A DNA stretch of 64,000 nucleotides, from assembly GCA_020852815.1 (NCBI GenBank), contig JADZAN010000009.1, positions 186,001 to 250,000 on the forward strand, given 5' to 3'. Both the position numbers and the translations under genes were made by a program. Below are positions 7,906 through 36,191 of this stretch, piece after piece. The notes beneath the pieces were generated by a model. That model made no database searches, was not told the origin of the DNA, and saw only the letters and a list, made by a program, of their open reading frames with translations. Source of the stretch: Gemmatimonadaceae bacterium (GTDB lineage Bacteria; Gemmatimonadota; Gemmatimonadetes; Gemmatimonadales; Gemmatimonadaceae). Position 1 is the first letter of the stretch, and every line of letters starts with the position of its first letter.

Positions 7906-8847
7906 TCAGGCCGAAACGCTGGCGGTGCGCGCGACTTCGACGATCTCCGCTGCGGAGGCGCGGATGGCCCACGCGATTCCGCGTTGCTCGATGGCGGCCT
8001 CCACCATGCGAGCACCGATGAAATACCCCGCGCGCTCGGGGATGACGATGCGATCGACCGTGCGGGCATCGTCGCTGGTGCCACCCATGAGGTAGCGCAG
8101 GCGCAGCCCCAGCGCGTGGTGGTCGAACTCCTGCGTGATGGCCCGCGTGATGTGCGTCTCGAGTTCGCGCACGCGTTGATACTGGCGTCGACCGTAGCCG
8201 TAGTACTCCCACGCGGCGTGCCCGGGGCTCACGAGTCGGGCGACGCTGACGGCGAGCCCTTCGTTGATGACGAGTTCGCGCACCGAGGCGCGCCGCCCCG
8301 ATTCCCAGTAGGAATAGTAGCCGTCGGCTTCGTCGATGAGCTGTCGCATCTCGCTGCGACTGGCGGGTGACGTATAGCGGACGACGTGCGCGATTTCGTG
8401 GGCGAGCCAGAGAGGAATCAGCTCGGGATCGAGTCCGAGGCCCTGGGTGTCCGGATTGGCGATCCCGGTGAAGTGCTCGAGGCAGACGAAAGCGACACCG
8501 CGCCCGGCGACGACGAGTTCGCCGGCATTGGCGCCGCCGACACCGACCATGAGGACGACGTCGAGGTCAACGTCGGTGCCTAACAACTCGGCGCACCGGG
8601 CTTCGGTCTCGCGCGCGAGCGCGACGACGTCGGTACGCTCCAGCATCGTGCGCAGGTCGGAGCGATCGGCCTGCGCGGTCATGCGGACCACTTCGAGGAA
8701 GTGCTCGCTATCCGGGTCGAAGACGTAGTTGTGCCAGTAGGCGGACAGCCTGGCGCGGTGTGCGTCGAAGTACTGCTGGTAGGCGGCGACTCGATCGGTG
8801 CTGTTCAGGACTGCGAAGAAGTCCGGCAGCAGATTGATGAGCATCAA
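7906..8847 (-). CDS. Predicted zinc metalloprotease (HExxH; DUF2268-like)
   Basis: The 313-residue protein has a zinc-protease motif HEIAH at residues 150-154. An ENGLA-like element (INEGLA) about 45 residues later probably carries the third ligand glutamate. This spacing and the surrounding sequence resemble DUF2268-type predicted Zn-dependent proteases. No signal peptide is evident, so a cytoplasmic location is likely, although the N-terminus is mildly hydrophobic. ATGs at 8847 and 8844 are both possible. It is a stand-alone gene converging on mnmE. Proteolysis is inferred from the motif; the substrate is unknown. Confidence 0.72.
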   Translation of the reverse strand: MMLINLLPDFFAVLNSTDRVAAYQQYFDAHRARLSAYWHNYVFDPDSEHFLEVVRMTAQADRSDLRTMLERTDVVALARETEARCAELLGTDVDLDVVLMVGVGGANAGELVVAGRGVAFVCLEHFTGIANPDTQGLGLDPELIPLWLAHEIAHVVRYTSPASRSEMRQLIDEADGYYSYWESGRRASVRELVINEGLAVSVARLVSPGHAAWEYYGYGRRQYQRVRELETHITRAITQEFDHHALGLRLRYLMGGTSDDARTVDRIVIPERAGYFIGARMVEAAIEQRGIAWAIRASAAEIVEVARTASVSA

Positions 8848-19779: not shown

Positions 19780-20027
19780 CTCGCCCTGCGCAACTGAACC
19801 CAGCCTGGCGCGGCCTGTTGCGACCCAGGCGTCCACAGCGATCCCGAGCGAGCCAGCACGTCATGCAGCTGTTCTTCTCCCACCTTCCAGTTCGCCACGT
19901 CTTCCGCCACGCTCCACGAATGCCTTCGTTGCCGCCGCTGCTTCCGCTACGAACGCTCTTCAAGCGCCGCACTGAGCGTCGTGATGCGCCAGATGCGAGG
20001 ACGGTAGCTATCGTGACGGCAGTGAGC

Positions 20028-21176
20028 ATGCGTGGCGTGCGTGCCGCCATGGTGGCGCTCGGCGCAGTTGCCATCGTTGCGCCCGCGACGGCGCGGGCGC
20101 AACGCACGGATGCGGCAGCGGCGCCCAGTGCGATCCTGTCGCGCGTGCAGCGGATGGTGAACGGCGGCGATCGCGATGGTGCGCGCGCGTTTGCCGACTC
20201 GGTGGTGCAGGCGTCGCCAGAGGGGAGCGCGGCGTACGTGGAGGCGCTCTACGCGCGCGCATTCGCCTCGCCGAGCGCGGTGGAGGCAGAGCGTGACTAC
20301 CTGCGGGTGAGCGTGGAGTATTCGCTGTCGCCGCGCGCGGAGGATGCCACGATGATGGTGGCGCAGCTCAAGCTCGCGCGGGGCGACCGGTTGGGGGCGC
20401 GCCGCAACTTCGAGCGCCTGGTGCGCGAGCACCCGGAGGGGAGCCAGGCATCGAAAGCCGCCTTCTGGGCGGGGCGGCTGGCGATCGAGGATGGCGACCT
20501 GCCGCACGGCTGCCAATCGTTAGCCACCTCGCGCGCGAAGGTCTCGGCCGACGACGTGGAGCTGGTGAACCAGATCGACTACTACCGCCAGCGGTGCAGC
20601 GCGGCGGCGCTGGCTGCCGCGGCGCCGGCGGACACGGCGGCTGCCGCCGCGAGCACGGCCAAGGGGGCGACCACGCCCGGGGCGGGGAGCGCGAAGGCCA
20701 GGCCGAAGACGGCCCGGGAGAAGGCGCAGGAGCGCGCCGATTCCGTGCGCGCCGAGAGGGCGCGCGTGGAATCGGCGCGCAAGGAACGGGTACGCCTCGA
20801 GCAGGAGCGCGTTGCAGCTGAACGCGCGGAGAAGCTGCGTGTAGCGCTGGAGCAACGTGCCGCGCAGGAGCAGGCGGCGACGCAGGAACGCATCGCGCGC
20901 GAACAAGCCGAGCGCCAACGAGCCGCCGATAGCGCGGCCGCGGTTCCCGGGAAGGTGTTCACGGTGCAGGTGGCGGCCTTTCCCAAGCTGCGCGACGCCG
21001 AAGCGTTGAAGGAGGTGCTGCAGCAGCGCGGTTATGAGGCGCGGGTGTGGGGGGCCAAGGCGCCGTTCCGCGTGCGGGTGGGGCGCTATGCCACGCATGA
21101 AGAGGCCGACGCGGCGTTGGCGCGCATGAAGGGGTCGCGCTTGAACGGGATGGTCGTCGAAGCCGAGCCGCAATGA
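20028..21176 (+). CDS. Exported SPOR-domain protein with coiled coil
   Basis: The product starts with a short signal peptide (MRGVRAAMVALGAVAIVAPA then ARAQ) and an alpha-helical repeat region resembling tetratricopeptides (about 25-170). It continues with an Ala-rich linker, a long charged coiled coil (AREKAQERADSVRAERARVE and onward, about 215-300) and a C-terminal SPOR domain (VFTVQVAAFPKLRDAEAL to RVRVGRYATHEEADAAL). SPOR domains bind denuded peptidoglycan at division sites, so an envelope or cell-division role is likely. The reading frame is open further upstream, but the ATG at 20028 gives the only clean signal peptide. Confidence 0.82.
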   Translation: MRGVRAAMVALGAVAIVAPATARAQRTDAAAAPSAILSRVQRMVNGGDRDGARAFADSVVQASPEGSAAYVEALYARAFASPSAVEAERDYLRVSVEYSLSPRAEDATMMVAQLKLARGDRLGARRNFERLVREHPEGSQASKAAFWAGRLAIEDGDLPHGCQSLATSRAKVSADDVELVNQIDYYRQRCSAAALAAAAPADTAAAAASTAKGATTPGAGSAKARPKTAREKAQERADSVRAERARVESARKERVRLEQERVAAERAEKLRVALEQRAAQEQAATQERIAREQAERQRAADSAAAVPGKVFTVQVAAFPKLRDAEALKEVLQQRGYEARVWGAKAPFRVRVGRYATHEEADAALARMKGSRLNGMVVEAEPQ

Positions 21177-21194
21177 GCCACCGATGAGCCGCCG

Positions 21195-23849
21195 ATGAGT
21201 CGCGACGCGACGCCGTTGATGCAGCAGTACCGGGACATCAAGGCCCGCCACCAGGAGGCGATCCTGCTGTTCCGGATGGGCGACTTCTACGAGATGTTCT
21301 TCGAGGACGCCGAGGTGGCGTCGCGCGTGCTGGGGTTGACGCTCACCAGCCGCAACAACGGGGGCGCATCCGACGTGCCGTTGGCCGGCGTGCCCGTGAA
21401 GGCGGTGAATGACTACCTGCGCCGGCTCGTGCAGCAGGGGTTCCGCGTCGCCATCTGCGAGCAGGTGGAGGATCCCAAGCTGGCCAAGGGGATCGTGCGA
21501 CGCGAAGTGGTGGAGACCATCACGCCCGGGGCCGCCTTCGCCGACGACCTGCTGGACGTCACGCGGAACAACTTCCTGTGCGCGGTGCACCGTGACGGCG
21601 ACACGTTCGGAATTGCAGCTGCCGACGTCTCGACCGGGGCGTTCCACCTGGTGATTGCGCCGGCGCGCGATGCCGGGGCGGCGCTGGCGCGCTTTGCGCC
21701 GAGCGAGGTGTTGGTGGCGCGTGGCACCTCGCTGGTAGGGGCGGCGGCCGGTGAGCTGAGCGCCGACGGGGCGCTGGTGACCGAGCGCGACGCTTGGGAG
21801 TTCGACCCGGAGCTGGCGCGCGAGGAGCTGGCGCGGCACTTCGGCGTGCACTCGCTGGAGGGCTTTGGCGTGGGGGGCGACGCGGCACCGGCGGTGGGGG
21901 CGGGGGGGGCGTTGCTCAAGTACGTGCGAGAGTTGCAGCCGGCGGGCATCCCGCACCTGTCGCGCCCGACGCTGGAGCGCGCGGGCGGCGTCATGCCGCT
22001 GGACGAGATGACGCGCCGCAACCTGGAGCTGGTGGAGTCGCTGCGTGGCGAGAGCGAGCACCCCAACGGGCGCGCGGCCGCCGAGCGTGCGGGGACGCTG
22101 CTGGGCGTGTTCGACCGCACGCAGACGCCAATGGGAGCGCGTGCGCTGCGGCAGTGGCTCCTGGCGCCGCTCCTGGACAAGGGGGCGATCGATGCGCGGC
22201 TGGATGCGGTGGGGGCGCTGGTGGGCGACTCGCTGGCCCGCGGCGCCGTGCGCGACGCGCTGGATGGGGTGCGCGACGTGGAGCGGCTGGCGAGCAAGGC
22301 GGCCGCGGGGCGCGCCACGCCGCGCGAGCTGGGCGCGTTAGGCAGCTCGCTGGCGCAACTGCCGCGCGTGGTGGCCGCGATTGCGCACCTCACGGACTAT
22401 GGCGCGCTGGGCGACGTTGCCGCGCACTGGGACTCGTGCGCCGACCTGGCGGAGGCGATCGCCGCGGCGCTGGTGGAGCGAGCGCCGGTGGCCATCGGCG
22501 ACGAGGATACCATTCGTCCCGGCGTGGACATCGCGCTGGACGAGCTGCGTGCGCTGCGCGACGGTGGGCGCGATGCCATCGCCAACATCCAGGCCGCCGA
22601 GCGCGAGCGGACGGGGATTACCTCGCTCAAGGTGGGTTACAACCGCGTCTTCGGGTATTTCATCGAGATCAGCAACGCCAACCGGCACCTGATTCCCGAC
22701 GACTACCAGCGCCGCCAAACGCTCACCGGCGCCGAGCGCTACGTCACGCCGGCGCTCAAGGAGTACGAGGAGAAGGTCCTGACGGCGACCGAGCGCATCG
22801 AGGTGCGTGAGCGCGAGCTGTTCGAGGCGTTGCGGACACGAGTGGGCGGGGCCATCCGCCGGCTGCAAGGGGCGGCGGCGCTGGCGGCGCAGCTCGACGT
22901 GCTGGCAACGCTGGCCGAGGTGGCGGCGAGCGAGCGCTATGTGCGCCCGGAAATCACGGACGGCTTCGAGCTGGACATCATTGGCGGGCGCCACCCGGTG
23001 GTGGAGCGGATGATGCCGCGCGACAAGTTCATCCCCAACGATGTGCAGCTGACGGACGGAGGGCGGATGATCATCCTCACCGGCCCCAACATGGCCGGCA
23101 AGTCGACGATCCTGCGCCAGATCGGGCTCATCGCGCTCATTGCGCAGGTCGGATCGTTCGTCCCGGCGGCGAAGGCGACGATCGGGATCATCGACCGCAT
23201 CTTCACGCGGGTGGGGGCGAGCGACAACCTGGTGCGCGGGCAGTCGACGTTCATGGTGGAGATGGCAGAGACGAGCGCCATCCTGCACACGGCCACTCGG
23301 CGGTCGCTGGTATTGCTGGACGAGATCGGGCGCGGGACGTCGACGTACGACGGCGTCTCGATCGCGTGGGCGGTGAGCGAGCACCTGCACGACACGACCG
23401 GGGCCAAGACCGTCTTCGCCACGCACTATCACGAGCTGACGCAACTCATCGACGAACTCCCGGCGGCGCGCAACTTCAACGTCGCGGTGCGGGAGGTGGG
23501 GGAGCAGGTGCTCTTTCTGCACCGATTGCAACCGGGTGGGGCGGATCGGTCGTACGGGATCGAGGTGGGGCGGCTGGCGGGATTGCCCGACGCCGTCATT
23601 CGACGTGCGCGCGAAGTGCTGGCGTTGCTGGAGGGGGAGGCGTTGGTGGCGGGACTCTCGGGGGAGAAGACGGGAAGACGAGAGGACGAGAAGACGAGAG
23701 GGGGGGGTGCGACACCGCAGTTGTCCCTCTTTGCCACTGCGCCGCATCCGGCGATGCTCAGGCTCAAGCAGGTGGACGTGAACCAGATGACGCCGCTGGA
23801 AGCGATGAAGATCCTCGACGAGCTCTCGCGACTCGCTAGGGATGCCTAG
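21195..23849 (+). CDS. mutS: DNA mismatch repair protein MutS
   Basis: MutS recognises mismatches and starts repair. The 884-residue protein has the mismatch-binding domain (LLFRMGDFYEMFFEDA with the Phe-x-Glu), connector and clamp regions, and the ATPase domain with Walker A GPNMAGKST and Walker B LLDEIGRGTSTYDG, followed by TTHYHEL-type AFATHYHELT. The linker before the C-terminal helices contains the unusual charged segment [15 protein letters not shown]. It is encoded by a 25-bp repeat (23677-23701) that recurs in an intergenic region at 25954. Function is probably unaffected because this linker is disordered in MutS proteins. Confidence 0.97.
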   Translation: MSRDATPLMQQYRDIKARHQEAILLFRMGDFYEMFFEDAEVASRVLGLTLTSRNNGGASDVPLAGVPVKAVNDYLRRLVQQGFRVAICEQVEDPKLAKGIVRREVVETITPGAAFADDLLDVTRNNFLCAVHRDGDTFGIAAADVSTGAFHLVIAPARDAGAALARFAPSEVLVARGTSLVGAAAGELSADGALVTERDAWEFDPELAREELARHFGVHSLEGFGVGGDAAPAVGAGGALLKYVRELQPAGIPHLSRPTLERAGGVMPLDEMTRRNLELVESLRGESEHPNGRAAAERAGTLLGVFDRTQTPMGARALRQWLLAPLLDKGAIDARLDAVGALVGDSLARGAVRDALDGVRDVERLASKAAAGRATPRELGALGSSLAQLPRVVAAIAHLTDYGALGDVAAHWDSCADLAEAIAAALVERAPVAIGDEDTIRPGVDIALDELRALRDGGRDAIANIQAAERERTGITSLKVGYNRVFGYFIEISNANRHLIPDDYQRRQTLTGAERYVTPALKEYEEKVLTATERIEVRERELFEALRTRVGGAIRRLQGAAALAAQLDVLATLAEVAASERYVRPEITDGFELDIIGGRHPVVERMMPRDKFIPNDVQLTDGGRMIILTGPNMAGKSTILRQIGLIALIAQVGSFVPAAKATIGIIDRIFTRVGASDNLVRGQSTFMVEMAETSAILHTATRRSLVLLDEIGRGTSTYDGVSIAWAVSEHLHDTTGAKTVFATHYHELTQLIDELPAARNFNVAVREVGEQVLFLHRLQPGGADRSYGIEVGRLAGLPDAVIRRAREVLALLEGEALVAGLSGEKTGRREDEKTRGGGATPQLSLFATAPHPAMLRLKQVDVNQMTPLEAMKILDELSRLARDA
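23677..23701. repeat. 25-bp purine-rich repeat, copy 1 (inside mutS)
   Basis: A 25-base string built from GACGAGAGGACGAGAAG plus ACGAGAGG is identical to the copy at 25954-25978. Here it is in frame and codes for part of the MutS C-terminal linker. Flanking bases on both sides are also related (AGAAGACG units). Confidence 0.85.
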
Positions 23850-23854
23850 CGAGT
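23831..23854 (+). terminator. Perfect 10-bp hairpin at the mutS stop codon
   Basis: ACTCGCTAGG (23831-23840) and CCTAGCGAGT (23845-23854) pair perfectly around the loop GATG, and the second arm contains the mutS stop. No T-run follows, so this may be an mRNA-end stabiliser and not a true terminator. Confidence 0.45.
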
Positions 23855-23925
23855 AACGGTAGATTCCGCTGGACGTGCTCTTTCGGTTCGACCGATGTTC
23901 ACCCCTGCCACTGTATTCACCTGAC

Positions 23926-24471
23926 GTGACGCGCACCGCCCGCCTTTCGCTCATACCTCCTGTGTCCCGCCACTCCCGCCACTCCCGCCACTCCCGCAAC
24001 TCCCCGCGCACCGCGCGGGCTACTGTGGTGACGACGTTGGCCGTGGCGTTACTTGCGTCGGGGTGCGGCAAGGGGGGAAGGGGGGAGGGGCCGCAGGTGG
24101 CGACGGCGGACTCGCTCCCGGTGTTCATCGGTGATTCGCTCCCGTTCAAGTACCCGGTGGCCCCGTATATCGAAGGGGTCCAGGACAACGTCACGTTGCG
24201 GCTGTACCTGGACGAGTTTGGCCGTCCGGTACCGGAGTCGACGAAGGTGCACGAACACGCGAAGCTCGCCGCCTTCGACAGCTCGGCGCTGGAGGGGGCA
24301 TCGCAGCTCGTCTTCCGACCGGCGTACCGCGACGGGAAGGCGATTGCCTTCCCGGTGCTCTTTCCGATCAAGTTCCGCGTCCCCGATGGCCCCCCGATGC
24401 CGGGGGACAGCGGGGCCCCGATTGCGCCCGCTGCGCCCGTCGTCGCCGAATCGTCCGCTGTCAAGCGTTAG
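23926..24471 (+). CDS. Lipoprotein with TonB C-terminal-like domain
   Basis: A hydrophobic segment ending LLASGC (lipobox) predicts an exported lipoprotein. The mature domain, VQDNVTLRLYLDEFGRPVPE to FDSSALEGASQLVFRPAYRDGKAIA, has the pattern of TonB C-terminal domains (a strand-turn, then the xVxxWRFxPA-like element). The start is uncertain: GTG 23926 keeps a basic lead with three 9-bp tandem repeats (SRH units, about 23970-23995), while GTGs near 24025 would give a short conventional signal. A role in energy transduction to outer-membrane receptors or as a periplasmic partner is inferred. Its stop codon lies inside a CGTTAGGC octamer. Confidence 0.65.
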   Translation: MTRTARLSLIPPVSRHSRHSRHSRNSPRTARATVVTTLAVALLASGCGKGGRGEGPQVATADSLPVFIGDSLPFKYPVAPYIEGVQDNVTLRLYLDEFGRPVPESTKVHEHAKLAAFDSSALEGASQLVFRPAYRDGKAIAFPVLFPIKFRVPDGPPMPGDSGAPIAPAAPVVAESSAVKR

Positions 24472-24491
24472 GCATTCACCCGGCCCCTTTC

Positions 24492-26982
<2,491 letters not shown>

Positions 26983-27022
26983 CCGCCGCGGGTTCTTCAT
27001 CTGGTGAGGATCTTCAGGACGC

Positions 27023-27682
27023 ATGGGAACACGACCGGTACTGGCAGCGGCGCTCGCGGGGATTCCGATCGGCATCCAGCGTCACGGCCAGTGGGCCGGG
27101 CGGCGACAGCTCCTGATCAAGTTCGCCGGGCCGGCCGAGACGGCGACGATGTACACGTCCGACGCGCTGGCGCGTGAGGTGGGGCGGGCGTTGAGCCGTT
27201 CGCCGGTGCACTCGATCTGCATTTCGGGGCGCGACGCGCTGGGGAACGCCGAGTTCCTGGAGGCGGCGCTGCAGGCACTGGCGACGAACACGCCGGTCGT
27301 GGCCGACACCGACGGGCAGCGCCCCGAGGCGATCGCCGTCCTGCACGCCTATCTCTCCCTCGTGCAGGTGTCGATCGACACGCCGGCATCGGAGGCGACG
27401 GTGGAGCGGGCGATGGAGACGGTTCGGGCCGCGGCGCGTGTGGGATGCGCGCAGGCGGTGGTCATTGGCGGGACGGATGAGGCCAGTGACGCCGATTACT
27501 TGCAGATCGTCGAGAAGGCGCACGCCGCAAGCGAGAAGGTGCGCCTCCTGATCCATCCCGGCCCCGCGACCGAGCGCGGGGTGCTGGACCGGCGGTGGGC
27601 GGTGCTGCTCGAGCACGCCATGGGGCGCCATGCCGACGTGCAGATCGCGCTGCGGTTGAGCGGACCGGCAACACTGCGGTAG
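27023..27682 (+). CDS. QueE-like radical-SAM-fold protein lacking the iron-sulfur cysteines
   Basis: QueE (7-carboxy-7-deazaguanine synthase) normally starts with IQGEGxWAGRPxxFxRxxGCxxxCxxC. Here the aligned N-terminus reads IQRHGQWAGRRQLLIKFAG, but the three cluster ligands at CxxxCxxC spacing are Pro37, Ala41 and Tyr44. The SAM-binding GGEP equivalent is GRDA (about 69-72). The rest still follows a QueE-like barrel (FLEAALQALATNTPVVADTDG, VSIDTPASEATVERAME, EKVRLLIHPGPATE). The frame is intact over 219 residues. It cannot bind the usual [4Fe-4S] cluster, so it is probably a pseudoenzyme. queF lies 1.5 kb downstream. Confidence 0.6.
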   Translation: MGTRPVLAAALAGIPIGIQRHGQWAGRRQLLIKFAGPAETATMYTSDALAREVGRALSRSPVHSICISGRDALGNAEFLEAALQALATNTPVVADTDGQRPEAIAVLHAYLSLVQVSIDTPASEATVERAMETVRAAARVGCAQAVVIGGTDEASDADYLQIVEKAHAASEKVRLLIHPGPATERGVLDRRWAVLLEHAMGRHADVQIALRLSGPATLR

Positions 27683-27879
27683 CTGTTGTGGCGCCCTTGG
27701 CGACGTGCCGTTCGCGGTGCGTTGTGCGCGGCGCCGTCGCGCGTGGGAGAGTGCGGGCAGTCGGGGACGTGGCCGGAACAGTCGGCGCCTCCCTGCGATA
27801 GATATAGTGGAGAAAGTTCGCGCAGAGGGCCGCTCACGCCGCCAGGGCCTTCGCGATCGCCGTTTGTCGCATCACGCCG

Positions 27880-28791
27880 ATGGGCCTCACGTACACCGAC
27901 GACACCGACTATCCGCGCCTCACGAAGGCGGTGCAGTGGTTGATCGCGATCAACGTCGCGATCTACTTCCTGCAGCTGACGGTTGTGGGTGCGCAGAACA
28001 TGCTGCCGGCGCTTGGCTTCTCGGCCGACGACCTGTCGCGTTCGTGGTGGACCATCGGGACGTACATGTTCGTGCACGGGGGCTTCTGGCACCTCGCCCT
28101 CAACATGTACACGCTCTACATCTTTGGCCCGCGCGTGGAGCATGCGTGGAGCGCCGGGGAGTTCACGCGTTACTACGTGCTGTGCGGGCTGGGCGGGTGG
28201 TTCTTCCACTTGCTGTTCGCGCGCGAGTCGCTGCTGATCGGTGCCTCCGCCGCGGTGCTGGGGGTGACGCTGGCCTATGCGACGCGCTGGCCCAACGACG
28301 AGGTCCTCCTGTTTGGCGTCGTCCCGCTCAAGGTGAAATGGATGGTGGCGCTGATGGTGGCGCTCAACCTCATTGGCGGGATGTCCGAGGGACAGGGTGG
28401 CGGGGTGGCGTATCTGGCGCACCTGGGCGGGCTTGCCGCGGGGTGGCTCTACCTGCGCACCGCATCTGGCGGCGGCGGAATCGATCGCTTCAAGCAGCGT
28501 GTGACCCCCGCAACCGACATCCCCGACGAGACTCCGCGCGCCATTCCGCGCTCCATGCCGCGCGCGCGTGAGAAGGGGAACGAGATCGATGATATCATCG
28601 CCCGCAGCAACTCCGCGGTGTCGCGGCGCCCGGCGCCGCAGTCGCCCCCACTCGGCGCCAAGGGGGTCAAGCGAATGAGCGACATCGACCTCGTGCTCGA
28701 CAAGATCTCGCAGCAGGGGATCGAGAGCCTGAGCGCCGACGAGAAGCGGATGCTGGAGGAGATGTCGCGGGAGCTACGCGACGGCGCGTAG
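27880..28791 (+). CDS. Rhomboid family intramembrane serine protease
   Basis: Rhomboids cleave membrane helices. The 303-residue protein has six hydrophobic segments in residues 15-195. The catalytic serine is Ser123 in GASAAVLG and the catalytic histidine His181 in YLAHLGG; HGGFWHLALNMYTLYIFG is the conserved HxxxN region. A charged cytoplasmic tail follows and ends in a small helical module (DIDLVLDKISQQGIESLSADEKRMLEEMSREL) often seen at the end of rhomboid-like proteins. It precedes a clear terminator. The 197-base gap before it holds no gene. Confidence 0.92.
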   Translation: MGLTYTDDTDYPRLTKAVQWLIAINVAIYFLQLTVVGAQNMLPALGFSADDLSRSWWTIGTYMFVHGGFWHLALNMYTLYIFGPRVEHAWSAGEFTRYYVLCGLGGWFFHLLFARESLLIGASAAVLGVTLAYATRWPNDEVLLFGVVPLKVKWMVALMVALNLIGGMSEGQGGGVAYLAHLGGLAAGWLYLRTASGGGGIDRFKQRVTPATDIPDETPRAIPRSMPRAREKGNEIDDIIARSNSAVSRRPAPQSPPLGAKGVKRMSDIDLVLDKISQQGIESLSADEKRMLEEMSRELRDGA

Positions 28792-28840
28792 CGATTGACA
28801 GCGCGAGGCTCTTGGTCGCGCGCGACGTTCCAAGCGATGA

Positions 28841-28864
28841 GGGCCGCCGGAGAGGCGGCCCTTT
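28841..28864 (+). terminator. Rho-independent terminator after the rhomboid gene
   Basis: An 8-bp perfect stem GGGCCGCC (28841-28848) and GGCGGCCC (28854-28861) with loop GGAGA is followed by TTT. Confidence 0.75.
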
Positions 28865-28910
28865 GCACGTCGGGAACTCATCCGGGCCTCACGCCGAAGT
28901 CGCGTGGGGG

Positions 28911-28941
28911 AAAAAAGAGCCCCCCGGCAGTACCGGGGGGC
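28911..28941 (-). terminator. Minus-strand terminator far downstream of the M16 operon
   Basis: A 9-bp stem (28919-28927 with 28933-28941, loop CAGTA) has AAAAAA at 28911-28916 on its left side, so only minus-strand transcripts would see hairpin then U-run. The nearest minus-strand gene ends at 29652, beyond queF. Confidence 0.65.
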
Positions 28942-29194
28942 GAGTGCCGTCGCGCCGTTCTCGCGTCGGCAGCGGCCGGCGCAACGAGCGCCAACCTGAA
29001 AACCAACCTACGGTTGAATCGGTCGCGTGTCCATAGCAGGGACGTACGCCATTGTGGAATCGTCACGCACTGGATTGGGACGCGACAATCGCGACGCCCA
29101 GCGGGGAGAGCGGCGGGGTCCCTTCGGTCACAGTGTCCGCGCGAGGGGTGAGCAGTACTACCCCGTGACCAGGCAGAAGATCACCTTTCGCCAC

Positions 29195-29590
29195 ATGCCG
29201 CAACCCGAACTGCTCGAGACGTTTCCGAACCCGTACCCTGGGCGGAACTACGAAATCTTCATGACGACGCCGGAGTTCACATCGCTCTGCCCGATTGGCG
29301 GGATCGAGACCGATGCGGCCGAGCTGGCGCTGCTCAAGGGTGGAGCGCCGGACTTCGCGACGATCAATATCTCGTATGTCCCGGACGATCTCTGCCTGGA
29401 GCTGAAGAGTCTCAAGCTCTATCTCTGGAGCTTCCGGAACGACGGGATCTTCTACGAGCGCGTGGTGAACCGCATCCTGGACGACCTGGTGGCCAAGGCG
29501 TCGCCGCGCTGGATGCGCGTGGTGGGAGATTTCAACGTGCGCGGTGGACTCAAGTCGATCATCACGGTCGACCACGGAAGCAAGCCGTAG
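29195..29590 (+). CDS. queF: NADPH-dependent 7-cyano-7-deazaguanine reductase (QueF)
   Basis: QueF reduces preQ0 to preQ1 in queuosine synthesis. The catalytic Cys32 lies in FTSLCP and the NADPH-site motif appears as LELKSLKLYLWSFRNDGIFYE, diagnostic of the short (type I) enzyme. Compared with the usual CPxTxQPDFATI there are about 14 extra residues (IETDAAELALLKGGA region) between the cysteine and PDFATI. The ATG at 29195 begins MPQPELLETFPNP, a natural QueF start; a longer frame upstream is not needed. It is probably transcribed alone, after the rhomboid terminator. Confidence 0.9.
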   Translation: MPQPELLETFPNPYPGRNYEIFMTTPEFTSLCPIGGIETDAAELALLKGGAPDFATINISYVPDDLCLELKSLKLYLWSFRNDGIFYERVVNRILDDLVAKASPRWMRVVGDFNVRGGLKSIITVDHGSKP

Positions 29591-29651
29591 CCGGGAGCCA
29601 CGCCGCGCGGCGCAGCCCCGGCCATGCACCATCTTCGACCTCAACTCGATC

Positions 29652-31118
29652 TCAGCGCGTGAGCGCGGCGAGGTCGAGGACGACGATCTCTCCCAGCTTG
29701 AGCGCCTCGATGGAGGGGCGCACGCTGTTGAGGTCGCCCACCACGATGACCGACGCCTGGTCGGGGTGGAGGTACTGCCTGGCCACGCGCTGCACGTCGG
29801 CGGTGGTGACACGGCGGACCTTGGCGGCGTACGTCGACAGTTCGGCGAGTGGGAGGTCGAAGACGGCGAGCTGCGCGATGGCCCCTGCCACCTGCGACGT
29901 GCTCTCGAGCGAACCGGGGAGCGCCAGTTCGACGTAGGCCTTGGCGCGCTGCAATTCGTCGTTGGACACGGGCTGGTCGCGAATGGCGCGCAGCTCCTTG
30001 AAGAACTCGACGAGCGACGAGTCGGTGACGTTGGTGCGCACGGCGGCCGAGGCGATGAAGGGGCCGGGCAGCTTGCGGAAGGTGAAGCGTGAGCTGGCGC
30101 CGTAGGTGTAGCCCTTGGCCTCGCGCAGGTTGGAGTTGAGGCGCGACGAGAATGAGCCGCCGAGGAGGGTGTTCATCACCATCAGCGGGGCGTAGTCGGG
30201 GGAGAGGCGATCGACGCCGGGCCACCCGATGGAGATGACCGACTGTGCGGCGCCGGGCTTGTCGACGAGGTAGACGCGCGTGCGCACCTCGCGGCGCGGC
30301 GCCGTGGTGACGGCCGCGGCGACGGCGGGGGCGCCGGCGGCGCGCCAGTCGCCAAGCCGCCGTTGCAGCTCGGCGCGTGCGCGCTCGGCCGCGATATCAC
30401 CGACGACGACGACCTGTGCGTGCTCGGGGCGCAGCGCCCGCGCGTAGAAGTTGCGCACGGCGCTGCTGTCGATCGCGGCGACAGTCGCCGAGTCGCCGCC
30501 GGCATTTCGGTGGTAGGGGTGGCCGGTGGGAAAGAGCGTGCTGTTGAAGGCGATGTCGGCGAGGGCGTTGGGCTGGTCGCGCTGCTGCAGGATAGCCGTC
30601 AGCCGCAAGTCGCGTTGCCGCTTGACCTCGGCGCTGGCAAAGGTGGGGCGGCGAATCACGTCGGCCAGGAGGTCGAGCGCCGGCGCGAGCGAGCGCACGG
30701 GGACCTTGAGCGAGACGGTGATGCGGTCCCAGTCGGCGCCGGTCTGGAGCGAGGCGCCGAGAAAGGCGAGTTCCGACTGGAGCGTGGCGGCGTCGCGCGT
30801 GCCGGCCCCTTCGTCGAGCATGTTGGCGGTGAAGGCGGCGATGCCGGCGTTGGCCGCGTCGAGGCGAGCGCCGCCGGGGAACGAGACCACGAGCTGCACG
30901 AGGGGGAGCTCGCGCTGCTCGACGACGCTCAGGGCGAGGCCGTTGGCGAGGCGCTCGCGATGGACGGCGGGGACGGTGAGCGGGGCGGCCGAGCCTAACG
31001 CCGGCGGGCGCTCGCGCACGGCGGGCTGGGCGGGCGCGGGGGACGTCGCCGATGCGACGGCGAACAGGGTGGCGCCGACGGCGGTGGCCGCGTGGCGCGC
31101 GAGATGGGCGCGGCTCAC
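29652..31118 (-). CDS. Exported M16 peptidase-like protein, non-catalytic partner
   Basis: A signal peptide (ATAVGATLFAVASATSPAPAQ) starts this 488-residue protein. The M16 fold is clear (RLANGLALSVVEQRELPLVQLVVSFPGGA; SSRLNSNLREAKGYTYGASSRF), but the HxxEH position reads AGIAAFTANMLDEG, so zinc binding is lost. It begins with an ATGA overlap (31115-31118) downstream of the active subunit and so forms the second half of a heterodimeric M16 peptidase in the periplasm or on the cell surface. It is distinct in sequence from the cytoplasmic pair at 13.6-16.3 kb. Confidence 0.88.
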   Translation of the reverse strand: MSRAHLARHAATAVGATLFAVASATSPAPAQPAVRERPPALGSAAPLTVPAVHRERLANGLALSVVEQRELPLVQLVVSFPGGARLDAANAGIAAFTANMLDEGAGTRDAATLQSELAFLGASLQTGADWDRITVSLKVPVRSLAPALDLLADVIRRPTFASAEVKRQRDLRLTAILQQRDQPNALADIAFNSTLFPTGHPYHRNAGGDSATVAAIDSSAVRNFYARALRPEHAQVVVVGDIAAERARAELQRRLGDWRAAGAPAVAAAVTTAPRREVRTRVYLVDKPGAAQSVISIGWPGVDRLSPDYAPLMVMNTLLGGSFSSRLNSNLREAKGYTYGASSRFTFRKLPGPFIASAAVRTNVTDSSLVEFFKELRAIRDQPVSNDELQRAKAYVELALPGSLESTSQVAGAIAQLAVFDLPLAELSTYAAKVRRVTTADVQRVARQYLHPDQASVIVVGDLNSVRPSIEALKLGEIVVLDLAALTR

Positions 31119-32566
31119 TGGGCACCTCCCGCGGTGGCGGCGAGCTCCTTCTTGCCGGTGGGGACGACGCTGACGGTGACGCGCGGGGCGCGCAGGTACT
31201 GGTTCACCACGCGCTTCACGTCGGCGGCGGTGACGCCCTGCATGCGGTCCAGGTCGCGCTGGAAGGCGTCGGGGGTGCCGGTGAAGTAGTAGTACTCGTT
31301 GAGCTGTTCGGCCTTGGCGTTCACGAACTCGAGGCGGTTGAGGAACTGCGACTCGAGCGCGTTGCGCGCCTGTTGCAGCTCACGGTCGGTGGGGCCGTCG
31401 GTGGCGAGGCGCACCAGCTCGCGGTCGATTGCGTCGCGCACGACGTTGAGCGCCTTGCCGGGGCGGGCGGTGGCGACCACGGTGAAGTCGCCGGCGAGCT
31501 TCTTGGCGTCGTTCTGCGCGTAGACGTCGCGGGCCAGCTCCTGCTCATAGACCACGGCACTCGTCAGGCGGGCGTTGCGCGCGCCGCTGAGGAGGTATTG
31601 CGTCACTTCGAGCGCCGCGTCGTCGGCGTGGAAGCGCGGGACGGCGTGCCAGGACAGGTAGAGGCGCGGGAGCTGCACGCGATCCTCGGCCACGATCACC
31701 GTGTCGCGCGGGACGATGGGAGCCGGCGTGGGGCGGGCGATGGCCGGGCCGCGCGGGATATCGGCGAAGAGCTGCCGCACGAGGGCGCGCACCGAGTCTC
31801 CCTTCACGTCGCCGGCCACGACGATGACGGCGTTGTTGGGGGCGTAGTACTTCCGGAAGAACTCCTTCGTGTCCTCGAGCGAGGCGGCGGAGAGGTCGGC
31901 CATGGAGCCGATCACCGGCCACGAATACGGATGGTCCTTGGGGTACATCGCCGGCGCGGAGATGTCCTCGACGATCCCATACGGCTGGTTCTCGACTCCC
32001 TGGCGCCGCTCGTTCTTCACCACCTCGCGCTGCGCGTCGACCTTGGCGCTGTCCATCGTTGGGAGGAGCCAACCCATGCGGTCGGCCTCGAGCCAGAGCA
32101 TGAGGGGGAGCGCGTGGCGCGGCCCCCACTCGTAGTACGCGGTGCGGTCGTTGTTGGTCGTCCCGTTGTTGCTGGCGCCGGCCGACTCGAGGAGGCGGTC
32201 GAACTGCGGATACTGGGCGTGCTCGGAGCCCATGAACATCAGGTGCTCGAAGAGGTGCGCGAAGCCGGTGCGCCCGGGCTTCTCATCGCCCGACCCCACG
32301 TGGAACCAGACGTTGGTGGCCACCGTGGGGACCGAGTGATCCTCGTGGACGATGAGGGTGAGCCCGTTGGGGAGGGTGTCGACGGTGACGGGGACGCGGA
32401 GGCGGGGCGACGCGCCCTGCACGCCCTGCGCGCCTTGCGCGTGCAGCGCGCGAGGTGCCGGGGTGGCGATGACGCCGGCGACCAGCGCGATGACCAGTGC
32501 GATGACCGGCCTCCTGGCGGACAAGGCCGGGAAGGTGCGGGAGCGGGCTCGGTGAAGTGGAGGCAT
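31115..32566 (-). CDS. Exported M16 family zinc peptidase, catalytic subunit
   Basis: The 483-residue product has an N-terminal basic region and a hydrophobic signal (VIALVIALVAGVIATPAP then LHAQ), followed by the active M16 motif HLFEHLMFMGSEH and the downstream glutamate region KNERRQGVENQPYG. The second half carries the R/Y-type region (NARLTSAVVYEQELA). Zinc-dependent peptide degradation outside the cytoplasm is expected. It is the first gene of a two-gene minus-strand operon with the non-catalytic partner. Upstream is a 256-base divergent gap shared with the histidine kinase gene, in which I see no strong promoter. Confidence 0.92.
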   Translation of the reverse strand: MPPLHRARSRTFPALSARRPVIALVIALVAGVIATPAPRALHAQGAQGVQGASPRLRVPVTVDTLPNGLTLIVHEDHSVPTVATNVWFHVGSGDEKPGRTGFAHLFEHLMFMGSEHAQYPQFDRLLESAGASNNGTTNNDRTAYYEWGPRHALPLMLWLEADRMGWLLPTMDSAKVDAQREVVKNERRQGVENQPYGIVEDISAPAMYPKDHPYSWPVIGSMADLSAASLEDTKEFFRKYYAPNNAVIVVAGDVKGDSVRALVRQLFADIPRGPAIARPTPAPIVPRDTVIVAEDRVQLPRLYLSWHAVPRFHADDAALEVTQYLLSGARNARLTSAVVYEQELARDVYAQNDAKKLAGDFTVVATARPGKALNVVRDAIDRELVRLATDGPTDRELQQARNALESQFLNRLEFVNAKAEQLNEYYYFTGTPDAFQRDLDRMQGVTAADVKRVVNQYLRAPRVTVSVVPTGKKELAATAGGAQ

Positions 32567-32822
32567 GCGGCTGTGGCGGCGTAGGCGGCGGCGATGGCGG
32601 CGATGTATGCGTATGCGAGGGCACCGGTGGTGCGAGGTCGACCGGACCGGGACACCGCGTCGACGCCCGCAAGCTGGTCATTGCGCGCTTCACATGGGAG
32701 CCCCCGCGGGGTGGCCCGCGCTGGCCGGGGGGTGGAGCGCGGTAGACCGGGCGCGGTGGACGGGGCCCATATTGTGTGCTATCTCAGGCGTGCTCGACCG
32801 GCGCAGCGAGAACAAACACGGG

Positions 32823-35111
32823 ATGCAAGGAGTGACTACACCTTCGAGGCAGAATTCGCTGCTGGAAGCGGTGTTCGAGGCGTCGCCATTCGGGTTGGCG
32901 GTGTACGATGCGTCGATGCGCTTCGTGCGCGTGAATGCAGTGTTCGCCGCCATCCATGGCCTCCCGGTGGACGTGTACATCGGGCGCACGCTGCGCGACG
33001 TGCTGCCGGCGCTCGCGCCGGACGTGGAGCCGGTCGTGGCGCGCGCGCTGGCGGGCGAGGTGGTGCGCGACGTTCCACTGTCCGGCGAGACGGCGGCACA
33101 GCCGGGAGTGCGGCGGCACTGGAACGCCAGCTATCTCCCCATCACCGTCGATGGTGAAGCGGGGGTCGCCGTCTTTGTCGAGGAGCGCACCGCGCAGGTC
33201 GAAGCGCAGCGCGCGCTGCGCGAGAGCGAGGCGCGCTTTCGCGCCATCGCCGCCTCGTCACCGATCGGGATCATCCTGAGCGACGTCGACAGCCGCCTGG
33301 TGTACGCGAACGCTGCCACCGAGCGCATGGCCGGCGTGAGCAGCGAGGCGCTGCAGGGCTTTGGCTGGAGCAACGTCGTTCATCCGGAAGACCTGCCGCG
33401 GCTGCAACAGCTCATCACCGAATCGATCCGCACGCAGGCGGGGGGGTACTCGATCTCGTTGCGCCTGCAGCGACCCGAGGGCGACGTGCTATGGGTCGAC
33501 GTGCTGGCGCGCGACTTCGTGCAGGATGGCGTTCGCACCGGGCGCCTCACGCTCGTCATCGATCACACCGAGACGCGCCGCATGGAAGCGGCGCTGCTGG
33601 AAAGCGAAGAACGCTTCCGCGAGTTGGCGGAAAACGTCGATGCGGTGTTCTATCTCGCGCGTCCCGATGGCTCGGTGGAGTATGTGAGTCCGGGCTTCGC
33701 CTCGATCTGGGGACTGTCGCCGGAGGCGCTGTACGCCAATCCCCGGCTCTGGCTCGAGAGCATGCACGCGGACGATCGGGAACGGGTGCGGCAGCTGGTG
33801 CAGCGCGATCGCGTGCGCTTCCGCGCCGAGTATCGCATCGTGCGTCCGGACGGCGAGGTGCGCTGGATTTCCGATCGTTCGTTTCCCGTGTTGGATGCCG
33901 CGGGTGAGGTGAGGCGCGTGGCCGGCGTGGCGACCGACGACACGCTGCGCCATTCGTTGGAGGCGCAACTGCTGCAGGCGCAACGACTGGAGAGCATCGG
34001 ACGCCTGGCGGGGGGCGTGGCGCACGACTTCAACAACCTGCTCACGGTGATCCTGAGTCATGCGGCCTTTGCCCGGCAGGATGTGTCGCAGGCTGGCGAG
34101 GACCTGTCGGCGATCGAGCAGGCGGGGGTGCGCGCCTCGGAACTCACGGCGCAGCTCCTGGCCTTTGCGCGGCGGCAGGTGATCGAACCGCGCATCGTCG
34201 ACCTCAACGCGCTCACCGGACAGGTGGACCGCATGCTGCGGCGCCTCATTGGCGCGCATGTGCAGCTGCAAACCGTATGTGCCGACGCGTTGTGGCCGGT
34301 GCGCGTGGACCCGGCGCAGATGGAGCAGGTGCTGGTGAACCTTGCCGTCAATGCGCGCGACGCGATGCCCGATGGTGGGACGCTGATCATCGAGACCGCG
34401 AACGTGGTGCTCGACGAGGGCTACGCCGCGGCGCATGCCGGCGTGACGCCGGGCGAGTACGTGATGCTGGCCGTGAGCGACAGCGGGAAGGGGATAGAGG
34501 CGCACGTGCTTCCCATGGTGTTCGAGCCGTTCTACACCACGAAGCCCAGCGGGAGCGGGACCGGGTTGGGGCTGGCGACGTGCTACGGGATCGTGAAGCA
34601 GGCCGGGGGGCACATCTGGGCGTACTCCGAGCCGGGCAACGGTGCCTCGTTCAAGATCTACCTGCCACGCGGGACGGGGACGCCGAGCGAACTCGCGCCC
34701 GCAGAGGCGGCGACGCCGCAGCGCGGGTACGAGACCGTGCTGCTGGTGGAGGACGACGAGGACGTGCGGGCGATTGCCGTGCGCACGCTGCGCGAACAGG
34801 GGTTCACCGTGCTCGAGGCGTACGATGGCGAGGATGCGTTGCAGGTGGCGGGTGCCCATGCCGGGGAGATCCACATCCTGGTGACCGACGTGGTGATGCC
34901 CCGGCTGGGAGGGAAGGAGCTGGCGGCGAAGCTCTCGGCGGAGCGTCCGTCGATGAAGGTGCTCTTTGCCTCTGGCTACACGCGCAACGCCATTGTGCAC
35001 CAAGGGGTGCTGGAGGATGGGATTCACTTCCTGCAGAAGCCCTACGTGCCGGCCACGCTCACCCGGCGCGTGCGCGACGTGCTCGACGGGGCGGGGGATA
35101 CGCCGCCCTGA
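32823..35111 (+). CDS. Hybrid sensor histidine kinase with three PAS domains and a receiver
   Basis: Three PAS-type sensor modules (about residues 12-130, 135-255 and 258-380) come first. They are followed by a HisKA-type dimerisation helix with the phospho-acceptor in GGVAHDFNNLLTVI, a HATPase domain (NLAVNARDAMPDGG; DSGKGI; GSGTGLGLATCYGIVKQ) and a C-terminal receiver (VLLVEDDEDVRA; phosphorylated Asp in LVTDVVMPRLGG; lysine in FLQKPY). There is no membrane segment from ATG 32823, so it is a soluble sensor. With its own receiver and no DNA-binding partner nearby, the output is unknown. The upstream in-frame extension to 32565 is not credible. Confidence 0.88.
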   Translation: MQGVTTPSRQNSLLEAVFEASPFGLAVYDASMRFVRVNAVFAAIHGLPVDVYIGRTLRDVLPALAPDVEPVVARALAGEVVRDVPLSGETAAQPGVRRHWNASYLPITVDGEAGVAVFVEERTAQVEAQRALRESEARFRAIAASSPIGIILSDVDSRLVYANAATERMAGVSSEALQGFGWSNVVHPEDLPRLQQLITESIRTQAGGYSISLRLQRPEGDVLWVDVLARDFVQDGVRTGRLTLVIDHTETRRMEAALLESEERFRELAENVDAVFYLARPDGSVEYVSPGFASIWGLSPEALYANPRLWLESMHADDRERVRQLVQRDRVRFRAEYRIVRPDGEVRWISDRSFPVLDAAGEVRRVAGVATDDTLRHSLEAQLLQAQRLESIGRLAGGVAHDFNNLLTVILSHAAFARQDVSQAGEDLSAIEQAGVRASELTAQLLAFARRQVIEPRIVDLNALTGQVDRMLRRLIGAHVQLQTVCADALWPVRVDPAQMEQVLVNLAVNARDAMPDGGTLIIETANVVLDEGYAAAHAGVTPGEYVMLAVSDSGKGIEAHVLPMVFEPFYTTKPSGSGTGLGLATCYGIVKQAGGHIWAYSEPGNGASFKIYLPRGTGTPSELAPAEAATPQRGYETVLLVEDDEDVRAIAVRTLREQGFTVLEAYDGEDALQVAGAHAGEIHILVTDVVMPRLGGKELAAKLSAERPSMKVLFASGYTRNAIVHQGVLEDGIHFLQKPYVPATLTRRVRDVLDGAGDTPP

Positions 35112-35144
35112 TGAGAGCTGACACCAAACGATGAATTGCTGACA

Positions 35145-36191
35145 ATGGACAGACGACAGTTCCTGGGCATGGGGGGTGCAGCGCTCGGCGCGGGCGCGGC
35201 CGTGTGGTCGGCCGCACGCGAGGCGGGGGCTGCGCCGTTAGGCAGCGACGCGCGCATCCACATGCGCGCTGACGCGCGCCATGACGCGCGAGCCGCCGAG
35301 CGACCTGGCGAGCACCTGACGACGATCGGCGTGCAGTTGTTCTCCCTCCCTAAACTGCTGGAGCAGGACCTGGACGGGACGCTGGCAATGCTGGCGGGGC
35401 TTGGCTATCGCGAGGTGGAGCTGTATGGCCCGTACGGCTTCAGCACGCCCGAGGCGATCGAGAGCTGGAAGGCGATGGGGGCGCGACTCGGCTTCGCGGC
35501 GAGCGGGACGTACGGGCGCACGCCCGGCGACTTTCGTGCGCTCCTGGACCAGCACGGGCTCAAGGCCGCCTCGGCGCACATCGAACTCGCCACGCTCCTG
35601 GCGCGCCCCGAGCAGGTGGGCGAAGCGGCGCAGGCGCTGGGGCTCAGGTATCTCGGCATCAGCAACATCCCGGCGCCGTACCGCAAGACGCTCGACGACT
35701 ACAAGCGGATGGCCGATCGCTTCAATGCGATGGGGGCGAAGGCCAAGCCGTACGGCTTCAAGGTGCTGTACCACAACCACGGGTACGGCTTGGCGCCGAT
35801 GGAGGGCGCGATCCCGCTGCGCGTGCTGCTCGATCGCGTGGACCCGGCGGTGTTCGCGGCGGAGATGGACTTGTTCTGGACCACGGCCGGCGGCGCCGAC
35901 CCCGTCGAACTGCTCACGGCATATCCACGGCTCTATCGCTTGCTGCACATCAAGGACATGAGCGAGAAGGTGCGTTTCGCGGGCGATGGCGGTGACGCGA
36001 GCCAGTGGATGGCGCTCTTCCCGAAGATGACGACCGCGGGGGATGGGGTGCTGCCGCTGCCGAGGATCCTGAGCGCGGCGAAGCGTGTGGGGGTGGAGCA
36101 CTACCTGGTGGAGCAGGACCTGGTGGCGAATCCGAAGGAGGCGTTGGGGGCGAGTATCGGGTACTTGCGGGGGGTAGAGTTGGGGGGGTAG
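35145..36191 (+). CDS. Tat-exported sugar phosphate isomerase/epimerase-like protein
   Basis: The N-terminus MDRRQFLGMGGAALGAGAAV is a twin-arginine signal, so the folded protein is exported. The rest is a xylose-isomerase-like TIM barrel (TIGVQLFSLPKLLEQDLDGT; GYREVELYGPYG; LYHNHGYGLAPMEG; AEMDLFWTTAGGADPVE; LLHIKDMSE) with the metal-binding pattern Glu, Asp, His and Glu typical of the family. Exported members of this family are common in environmental bacteria and usually act on sugars or cyclitols; the substrate here is unknown. It follows the kinase gene by 33 bases. Confidence 0.85.
   Translation: MDRRQFLGMGGAALGAGAAVWSAAREAGAAPLGSDARIHMRADARHDARAAERPGEHLTTIGVQLFSLPKLLEQDLDGTLAMLAGLGYREVELYGPYGFSTPEAIESWKAMGARLGFAASGTYGRTPGDFRALLDQHGLKAASAHIELATLLARPEQVGEAAQALGLRYLGISNIPAPYRKTLDDYKRMADRFNAMGAKAKPYGFKVLYHNHGYGLAPMEGAIPLRVLLDRVDPAVFAAEMDLFWTTAGGADPVELLTAYPRLYRLLHIKDMSEKVRFAGDGGDASQWMALFPKMTTAGDGVLPLPRILSAAKRVGVEHYLVEQDLVANPKEALGASIGYLRGVELGG

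What the first reader, a model, noticed from the sequence alone, without database searches (positions are those of the whole stretch)
27023..27682. QueE-like pseudoenzyme without its iron-sulfur cysteines
The protein aligns with QueE through IQxxGxWAGR and the following strand, but the CxxxCxxC positions are Pro37, Ala41 and Tyr44 and the GGEP motif is GRDA. The gene is intact, co-directional with ddl and near queF. Radical-SAM chemistry needs those cysteines, which is established knowledge. Retention of an open frame suggests a new role, for example regulatory or substrate-binding, or a chaperone for another QueE.
Basis: partly seen in the sequence, partly recalled or inferred. Interest (0 to 1): 0.7.

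Follow-up and report, generated by a model that had tools for sequence, protein, structure and literature searches.

The report
Cysteine-free QueE relative behind ddl
A protein with the shape of a radical enzyme that makes a tRNA-modification precursor has lost its whole iron-sulfur site, yet a family of soil and water bacteria (Gemmatimonadaceae) keeps it almost unchanged right behind a cell-wall gene, so it probably does a new, non-radical job there.

Summary
Window 27023-27682 (+) is an intact 219-aa gene. The positions of the radical-SAM cysteines are Pro37, Ala41 and Tyr44, and GGEP reads G-R-D-A (G-R-D-P in most relatives). It is not a decaying copy: 71 distinct relatives, all Gemmatimonadota, share it, with median dN/dS about 0.1 and not one cysteine at the three positions. 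In their place stands an invariant Ala-Glu-Thr-Ala loop. Two structure models (pLDDT 89 and 93) match solved QueE best (Z 17.9 and 17.7), although in the second PFL activating enzyme is tied. Profile comparison favours QueE over eight other radical-SAM proteins of the genome. A true QueE sits beside queC elsewhere in this genome. The gene always follows ddl (D-Ala-D-Ala ligase), with start and stop codons overlapping in 28 of 61 loci. Relatives without it join ddl directly to the next gene. One complete genome (G035) keeps it while lacking QueC, QueE and QueF, which argues against a chaperone or queuosine role. Best reading: a QueE-derived, non-radical protein with a remodelled pocket, working with Ddl or cell-wall precursor supply. 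Fold, lost chemistry and ddl coupling are shown; the function is inferred.

The parts
27023..27682 (+). Cysteine-free QueE-derived protein ('PsQ' in this report), 219 aa
27125..27145 (+). Loop after strand 1 (residues 35-41, A-G-P-A-E-T-A), in place of the CxxxCxxC loop; A35, A38, E39, T40 and A41 are invariant in 71 sequences
27227..27238 (+). G-R-D-A (residues 69-72), in place of GGEP; family consensus G-R-D-P
27305..27316 (+). D-T-D-G (residues 95-98), in place of QueE E-T-(N/S)-G; D97 invariant
27554..27559 (+). H178-P179, in place of the QueE Gln-Pro (Gln189 of E. coli QueE, predicted SAM contact)
25984..26982 (+). ddl, D-alanine--D-alanine ligase, upstream partner gene
27880..28791 (+). 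rhomboid-family membrane protein; directly follows ddl in relatives without PsQ
29027..29590 (+). queF (QueF-II type preQ1 synthase), next in the conserved block
24492..25940 (+). cystathionine beta-synthase/cysteine synthase-like gene upstream of ddl; inverted in some relatives while ddl-PsQ stays together

Best explanation
PsQ descends from a QueE-type radical-SAM barrel that lost the [4Fe-4S] site completely and cannot do radical-SAM chemistry. SHOWN: the loss is family-wide; the predicted fold is the radical-SAM barrel with QueE as best or joint-best match; the gene is under purifying selection; it is inserted directly behind ddl and often overlaps it. The three loops that form the cluster/SAM end of the barrel in QueE are among the most conserved parts (A-E-T-A, G-R-D-P, D-x-D-G-Q-R-P), with HP after strand 6. 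INFERRED: these loops form a new polar pocket that binds a small ligand. The protein is made together with Ddl and acts as a ligand-responsive accessory or regulator of D-Ala-D-Ala supply or another early cell-wall step, with no role in queuosine synthesis.
For: Family of 71 distinct sequences without the cysteines, with invariant A38-E39-T40-A41, G69, D71, D97, D156, P179 and H203. Median dN/dS 0.10 over 60 pairs. The loops after strands 1-3 have mean entropy 0.46 bit against 1.46 overall; 36 of 20,000 random segment sets are as low. Two models, pLDDT 88.7 and 92.7; QueE B. subtilis Z 17.9 (rmsd 3.2, 202 aligned) and 17.7 (rmsd 3.3, 198 aligned). Profile match to CxxxCxxC QueE, E 1.4e-5, aligning GIQxxxxWAG, the GGEP region and ETSG; other radical-SAM proteins of the genome score 14-20 against 31-42 for QueE. 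Ddl-PsQ adjacent and co-directional in 61 of 61 loci that hold both; median gap 2 nt; 28 of 61 overlap by 1 or 4 nt. Without PsQ, ddl runs straight into the rhomboid gene, median gap 63 nt. G035 keeps PsQ without QueC, QueE and QueF.
Against: No direct evidence of an interaction with Ddl, of a ligand or of any activity. The ddl-rhomboid block is ancient, so adjacency alone is weak evidence; the start/stop overlap is stronger but absent in the window itself (40-nt gap). The gene is missing from most Gemmatimonadota, so Ddl does not need it. The structure tool gave no coordinates, so the pocket is read from strand ends and not measured.
Confidence: 0.42

Rival explanations
1. PsQ is a new non-radical enzyme: the conserved carboxylates and histidine at the C-terminal ends of the strands (E39, D71, D97, D156, H178) form a metal or acid-base site on the old barrel and catalyse another reaction.
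For: Invariant or nearly invariant E39, T40, D71, D97, R100, D156, H178 and P179 lie at or just after strand ends in the model. A weak xylose-isomerase-like TIM-barrel hit, below cut-off.
Against: Only sub-threshold hits to any enzyme family other than Radical_SAM; the residues' spatial closeness was not measured.
Confidence: 0.3
2. PsQ is a partner of the true QueE (heteromer, chaperone) or a sensor of a deazapurine or pterin ligand for the queuosine pathway.
For: QueE substrate contacts Q13 and R27 (numbering of E. coli QueE, PMC11142719) are kept as Q19 (68/71) and R/K33 (71/71). QueF lies in the same block; 57 of 61 PsQ-bearing genomes also have a QueE.
Against: G035 keeps PsQ and tRNA-guanine transglycosylase but lacks QueC, QueE and QueF; G057 of its genus lacks them too. 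QueE contact E15 is lost (mostly Q or L). Many relatives with QueE have no PsQ.
Confidence: 0.12
3. PsQ is a fixed form of the QueE moonlighting role: a catalytically dead QueE that acts on cell division, as E. coli QueE R27A still does at the Z-ring.
For: E. coli QueE blocks septation independently of its catalysis (PMC11142719); PsQ sits with a cell-wall gene.
Against: PsQ's model goes from the strand at 42-45 straight into a helix at residue 46, so it lacks the E45-W67 insert that E. coli QueE needs for this. C31A and C35A abolish the septation effect in E. coli QueE, and PsQ lacks those cysteines. B. subtilis QueE does not do it either.
Confidence: 0.06
4. PsQ comes from another short radical-SAM activase (PFL activating enzyme or NrdG-like) and not from QueE.
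Against: The N-terminal GIQxxxxWAGxxxxFVRxxG stretch and the profile match point to QueE; QueE outscores other radical-SAM proteins of the genome. PFL-AE itself was not scored by profile.
Confidence: 0.1

Closest known systems
QueE, 7-carboxy-7-deazaguanine synthase (B. subtilis 5TH5/5TGS, E. coli 6NHL, B. multivorans 4NJG)
   Same: Overall barrel over about 200 residues, N-terminal IQ...WAG...FVR stretch, positions of the GGEP-, ETNG- and QP-like motifs, similar length
   Different: No cluster cysteines, G-R-D-P for GGEP, E15 and Mg-binding Thr40 not kept, QP replaced by HP; different genomic partner (ddl, not queC/queD)
E. coli QueE as cell-division regulator (PMC11142719)
   Same: Precedent that a QueE fold can have a catalysis-independent role linked to the envelope
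   Different: E. coli QueE is an active enzyme with two roles; the E45-W67 insert it needs is absent here; no division link shown
Radical-SAM superfamily (Pfam PF04055)
   Same: Pfam match over cut-off and same fold
   Different: Defining CxxxCxxC absent in all 71 members

Membership tests
Radical-SAM superfamily, functional member | CxxxCxxC (or Cx14CxxC) cluster motif | tested here: not met
   0 of 71 members have Cys at the three positions; 0-3 Cys per protein, none conserved
Radical-SAM superfamily, fold/homology | Sequence profile and (beta/alpha)6 partial barrel | tested here: met
   PF04055 31.2 bits over cut-off 29.5; VIA-align top rows are radical-SAM proteins
Radical-SAM superfamily, functional member | GGE motif for the SAM amino group | tested here: not met
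   G-R-D-P/A; R70 66/71, D71 71/71
QueE (CDG synthase) | NCBIfam QueE model over its cut-off | tested here: not met
   No NCBIfam hit for the window protein; one of 26 relatives at E 0.07
QueE (CDG synthase) | QueE fold as best structural match | tested here: met
   5TH5 Z 17.9, next non-QueE 15.9; 17.7 against 16.8 in a second model, tied
QueE (CDG synthase) | Substrate contacts Q13, E15, R27 (E. coli numbering) | tested here: inconclusive
   Q and R/K kept, E lost; equivalence rests on a sequence alignment
QueE (CDG synthase) | Linkage to queC/queD | tested here: not met
   ddl-PsQ-rhomboid-queF in the family; the true queE lies by queC
Cell-division-regulating QueE | E45-W67-like two-helix insert | tested here: not met
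   Strand 42-45 is followed at once by helix 46-59 in the model; requirement from PMC11142719
Pseudoenzyme (enzyme fold, no catalysis) | Absence of any catalytic activity | not testable with these tools
   Only the loss of radical-SAM chemistry can be read from sequence; another activity is possible

The most novel reading that the evidence does not exclude
A radical-SAM barrel was converted, once, in Gemmatimonadaceae, into a non-radical protein with a new conserved site (A-E-T-A / G-R-D-P / D-x-D-G-Q-R-P) that controls or assists D-Ala-D-Ala ligase: a Ddl-dedicated partner protein, and a rare case of a whole radical-SAM-derived family without its cluster.
Probability: 0.25. Interest if true: 0.8.

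Novelty: new variant of a known kind. Interest (0 to 1): 0.6.

Why it matters
Radical-SAM enzymes are defined by their cluster. A conserved family that lost the whole cluster site and kept the barrel shows how the fold can be reused, and its strict coupling to ddl gives a concrete, testable lead to an unrecognised layer in cell-wall precursor synthesis. It would also mislead automatic annotation (a radical-SAM Pfam hit without radical-SAM chemistry).

Tried and rejected
Decaying pseudogene: rejected (open frame in about 60 genomes, dN/dS about 0.1). Cysteines at shifted positions: rejected (0-3 Cys per protein, no conserved column; the commonest, 142 and 149, reach 26 and 21 of 71). Replacement of a missing QueE: rejected (a true QueE stands beside queC in the same genome). 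Riboswitch near the block: no Rfam match in 20000-36000. Mobile or plasmid origin: no plasmid hit. Solved structures by sequence: no hit for the protein at E<=1; the family profile found only weak methionine-synthase matches, E 0.085 at best. Foldseek's own E-value list put other radical-SAM proteins and aldolases first and showed no QueE in its top 50; VIA-align re-ranked QueE first. Phage families: only weak scattered hits. Literature searches found no report of a cysteine-free QueE or degenerate radical-SAM family in the open library.

Full report
WHAT IS THERE. The window gene at 27023-27682 (+) is a complete ORF of 219 aa. It carries a Radical_SAM Pfam hit just over the curated cut-off (31.2 bits, E 2.9e-7), and the same gene turned up unasked in a whole-genome scan for that family. 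No NCBIfam model recognises it. 'PsQ' is used below as a working name only.

A REAL FAMILY. A protein search of 99 related genomes gave 27 carriers, at 39-76% identity outside the window genome. A profile search of 395 genomes of the phylum gave 60, all in the window's own family-level group. A scan of about 85,000 species gave 63 loci, nearly all titled Gemmatimonadetes, Gemmatimonadota, Gemmatimonas or Gemmatimonadaceae and two from one record titled 'bacterium'. From these I took 71 distinct proteins. Invariant positions include A9, G13, G22, W24, G26, R28, Q29, F34, A35, A38-E39-T40-A41, H63, G69, D71, D97, D156, P179 and H203. None has a cysteine at 37, 41 or 44; total cysteines are 0 to 3 per protein. 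Median dN/dS over 60 pairs is 0.10 (range 0.03-0.25). The cysteine loss is therefore old and fixed, and the protein is under selection.

RELATION TO QueE. The other classes of the phylum have CxxxCxxC QueE-like proteins that read [30 protein letters not shown]. A typical PsQ reads GIQRQGVWAGRRQLFIRFAGAAETATMYT. Profile-profile comparison gives E 1.4e-5 and probability 80 over residues 17-125. The genome's own Cx14CxxC QueE gives E 4e-4. Eight other radical-SAM proteins of the genome score only 14-20 against 31-42 for QueE. AlphaFold2 models of the window protein (pLDDT 88.7) and of a distant member (pLDDT 92.7) both give QueE from B. subtilis as the top VIA-align row: Z 17.9, rmsd 3.2, 202 aligned and Z 17.7, rmsd 3.3, 198 aligned. 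PFL activating enzyme follows at 15.9 and 16.8, so in the second model it is tied. QueE origin is the best reading but is not proven by fold alone.

WHAT CHANGED. Using the E. coli QueE residue roles in PMC11142719: substrate contacts Q13 and R27 are kept as Q19 and R/K33; E15 is lost; cluster C31/C35/C38 become E(P)/A/Y; Mg-binding T40 becomes A/S; GGEP becomes G-R-D-P; ET(N/S)G becomes D-x-D-G; the SAM-site Q189-P becomes H178-P179. The residue equivalences are from sequence alignment. The loops after strands 1, 2 and 3, which carry the cluster and SAM in a radical-SAM enzyme, are among the most conserved parts of PsQ: mean entropy 0.46 bit against 1.46 overall, with 36 of 20,000 random segment triplets as low. 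The site has been rebuilt rather than abandoned. This speaks for a ligand-binding or catalytic pocket without a cluster, and against a free-floating scaffold.

CONTEXT. Ddl and PsQ are adjacent and co-directional in all 61 loci that hold both; the two loci without a visible ddl start at the contig end. The median distance from ddl stop to PsQ start is 2 nt, with overlap of 1 or 4 nt in 28 of 61; in the window it is 40 nt. Where the upstream cystathionine-synthase/TonB block is inverted (for example L113, L116, L117), ddl-PsQ stays together. In relatives without PsQ, including other families of the order, ddl is followed directly by the rhomboid gene, with a median gap of 63 nt. PsQ is thus an insertion between ddl and rhomboid. 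Its patchy presence within genera (present and absent species in g2, g20, g24) suggests repeated loss.

QUEUOSINE LINK. The window genome has queC and a canonical Cx14CxxC queE side by side on another contig (C3:72440-73803). Of 61 PsQ-bearing genomes examined, 57 have such a QueE. G035 (rated 100% complete) carries an intact PsQ but no QueC, QueE or QueF, while it keeps tRNA-guanine transglycosylase. Its congener G057 also lacks the three, so this is probably a genus-level loss rather than an assembly gap. That separates PsQ from deazaguanine synthesis and disfavours the chaperone idea.

MECHANISM. I favour a ligand-responsive accessory protein made together with Ddl. Shown: fold (predicted, two models), loss of cluster residues, selection, gene coupling. 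Inferred: pocket, ligand, action on Ddl. The nearest rival is a new non-radical enzyme using the conserved acidic and histidine residues. The known moonlighting of E. coli QueE in cell division is a useful precedent, since its catalytically dead R27A mutant still blocks septation. Its required insert and cysteines are missing here.

LIMITS. No coordinates were available for pocket measurement; complexes could not be predicted; the literature library holds open-licence papers only. The G035 argument rests on one species plus a congener.

Noticed in passing
L131 about 7990-8215 (same contig as L179, genome G309): PsQ here is reduced to about 80 codons by what looks like an in-frame internal deletion: an intact N-terminal stretch of about 47 residues joined to the C-terminal strand, followed by the usual stop. 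It may be real loss in progress or an assembly fault.
   Followed up: partly
window 23657-23720 and 25934-25997: A purine-rich 8-nt-period repeat (AGAAGACG/AGAGGACGAG) occurs in the 3' end of mutS and again just before ddl; 6 matches to an 18-mer against 0.06 expected.
   Followed up: partly
L038 2968-4834: queC, queE and a queD-like reading frame lie in one run on the minus strand; a PSLGQASR-type repeat (in translation) separates queE from queD.
   Followed up: no
L105 (no rhomboid hit between PsQ and queF): The rhomboid gene is missing from the block while PsQ and queF remain; G046 (L168) lost both rhomboid and PsQ.
   Followed up: no
genomes G035 and G057: This genus appears to have lost QueC, QueE and QueF but keeps tRNA-guanine transglycosylase, suggesting salvage of queuine or preQ bases.
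   Followed up: partly
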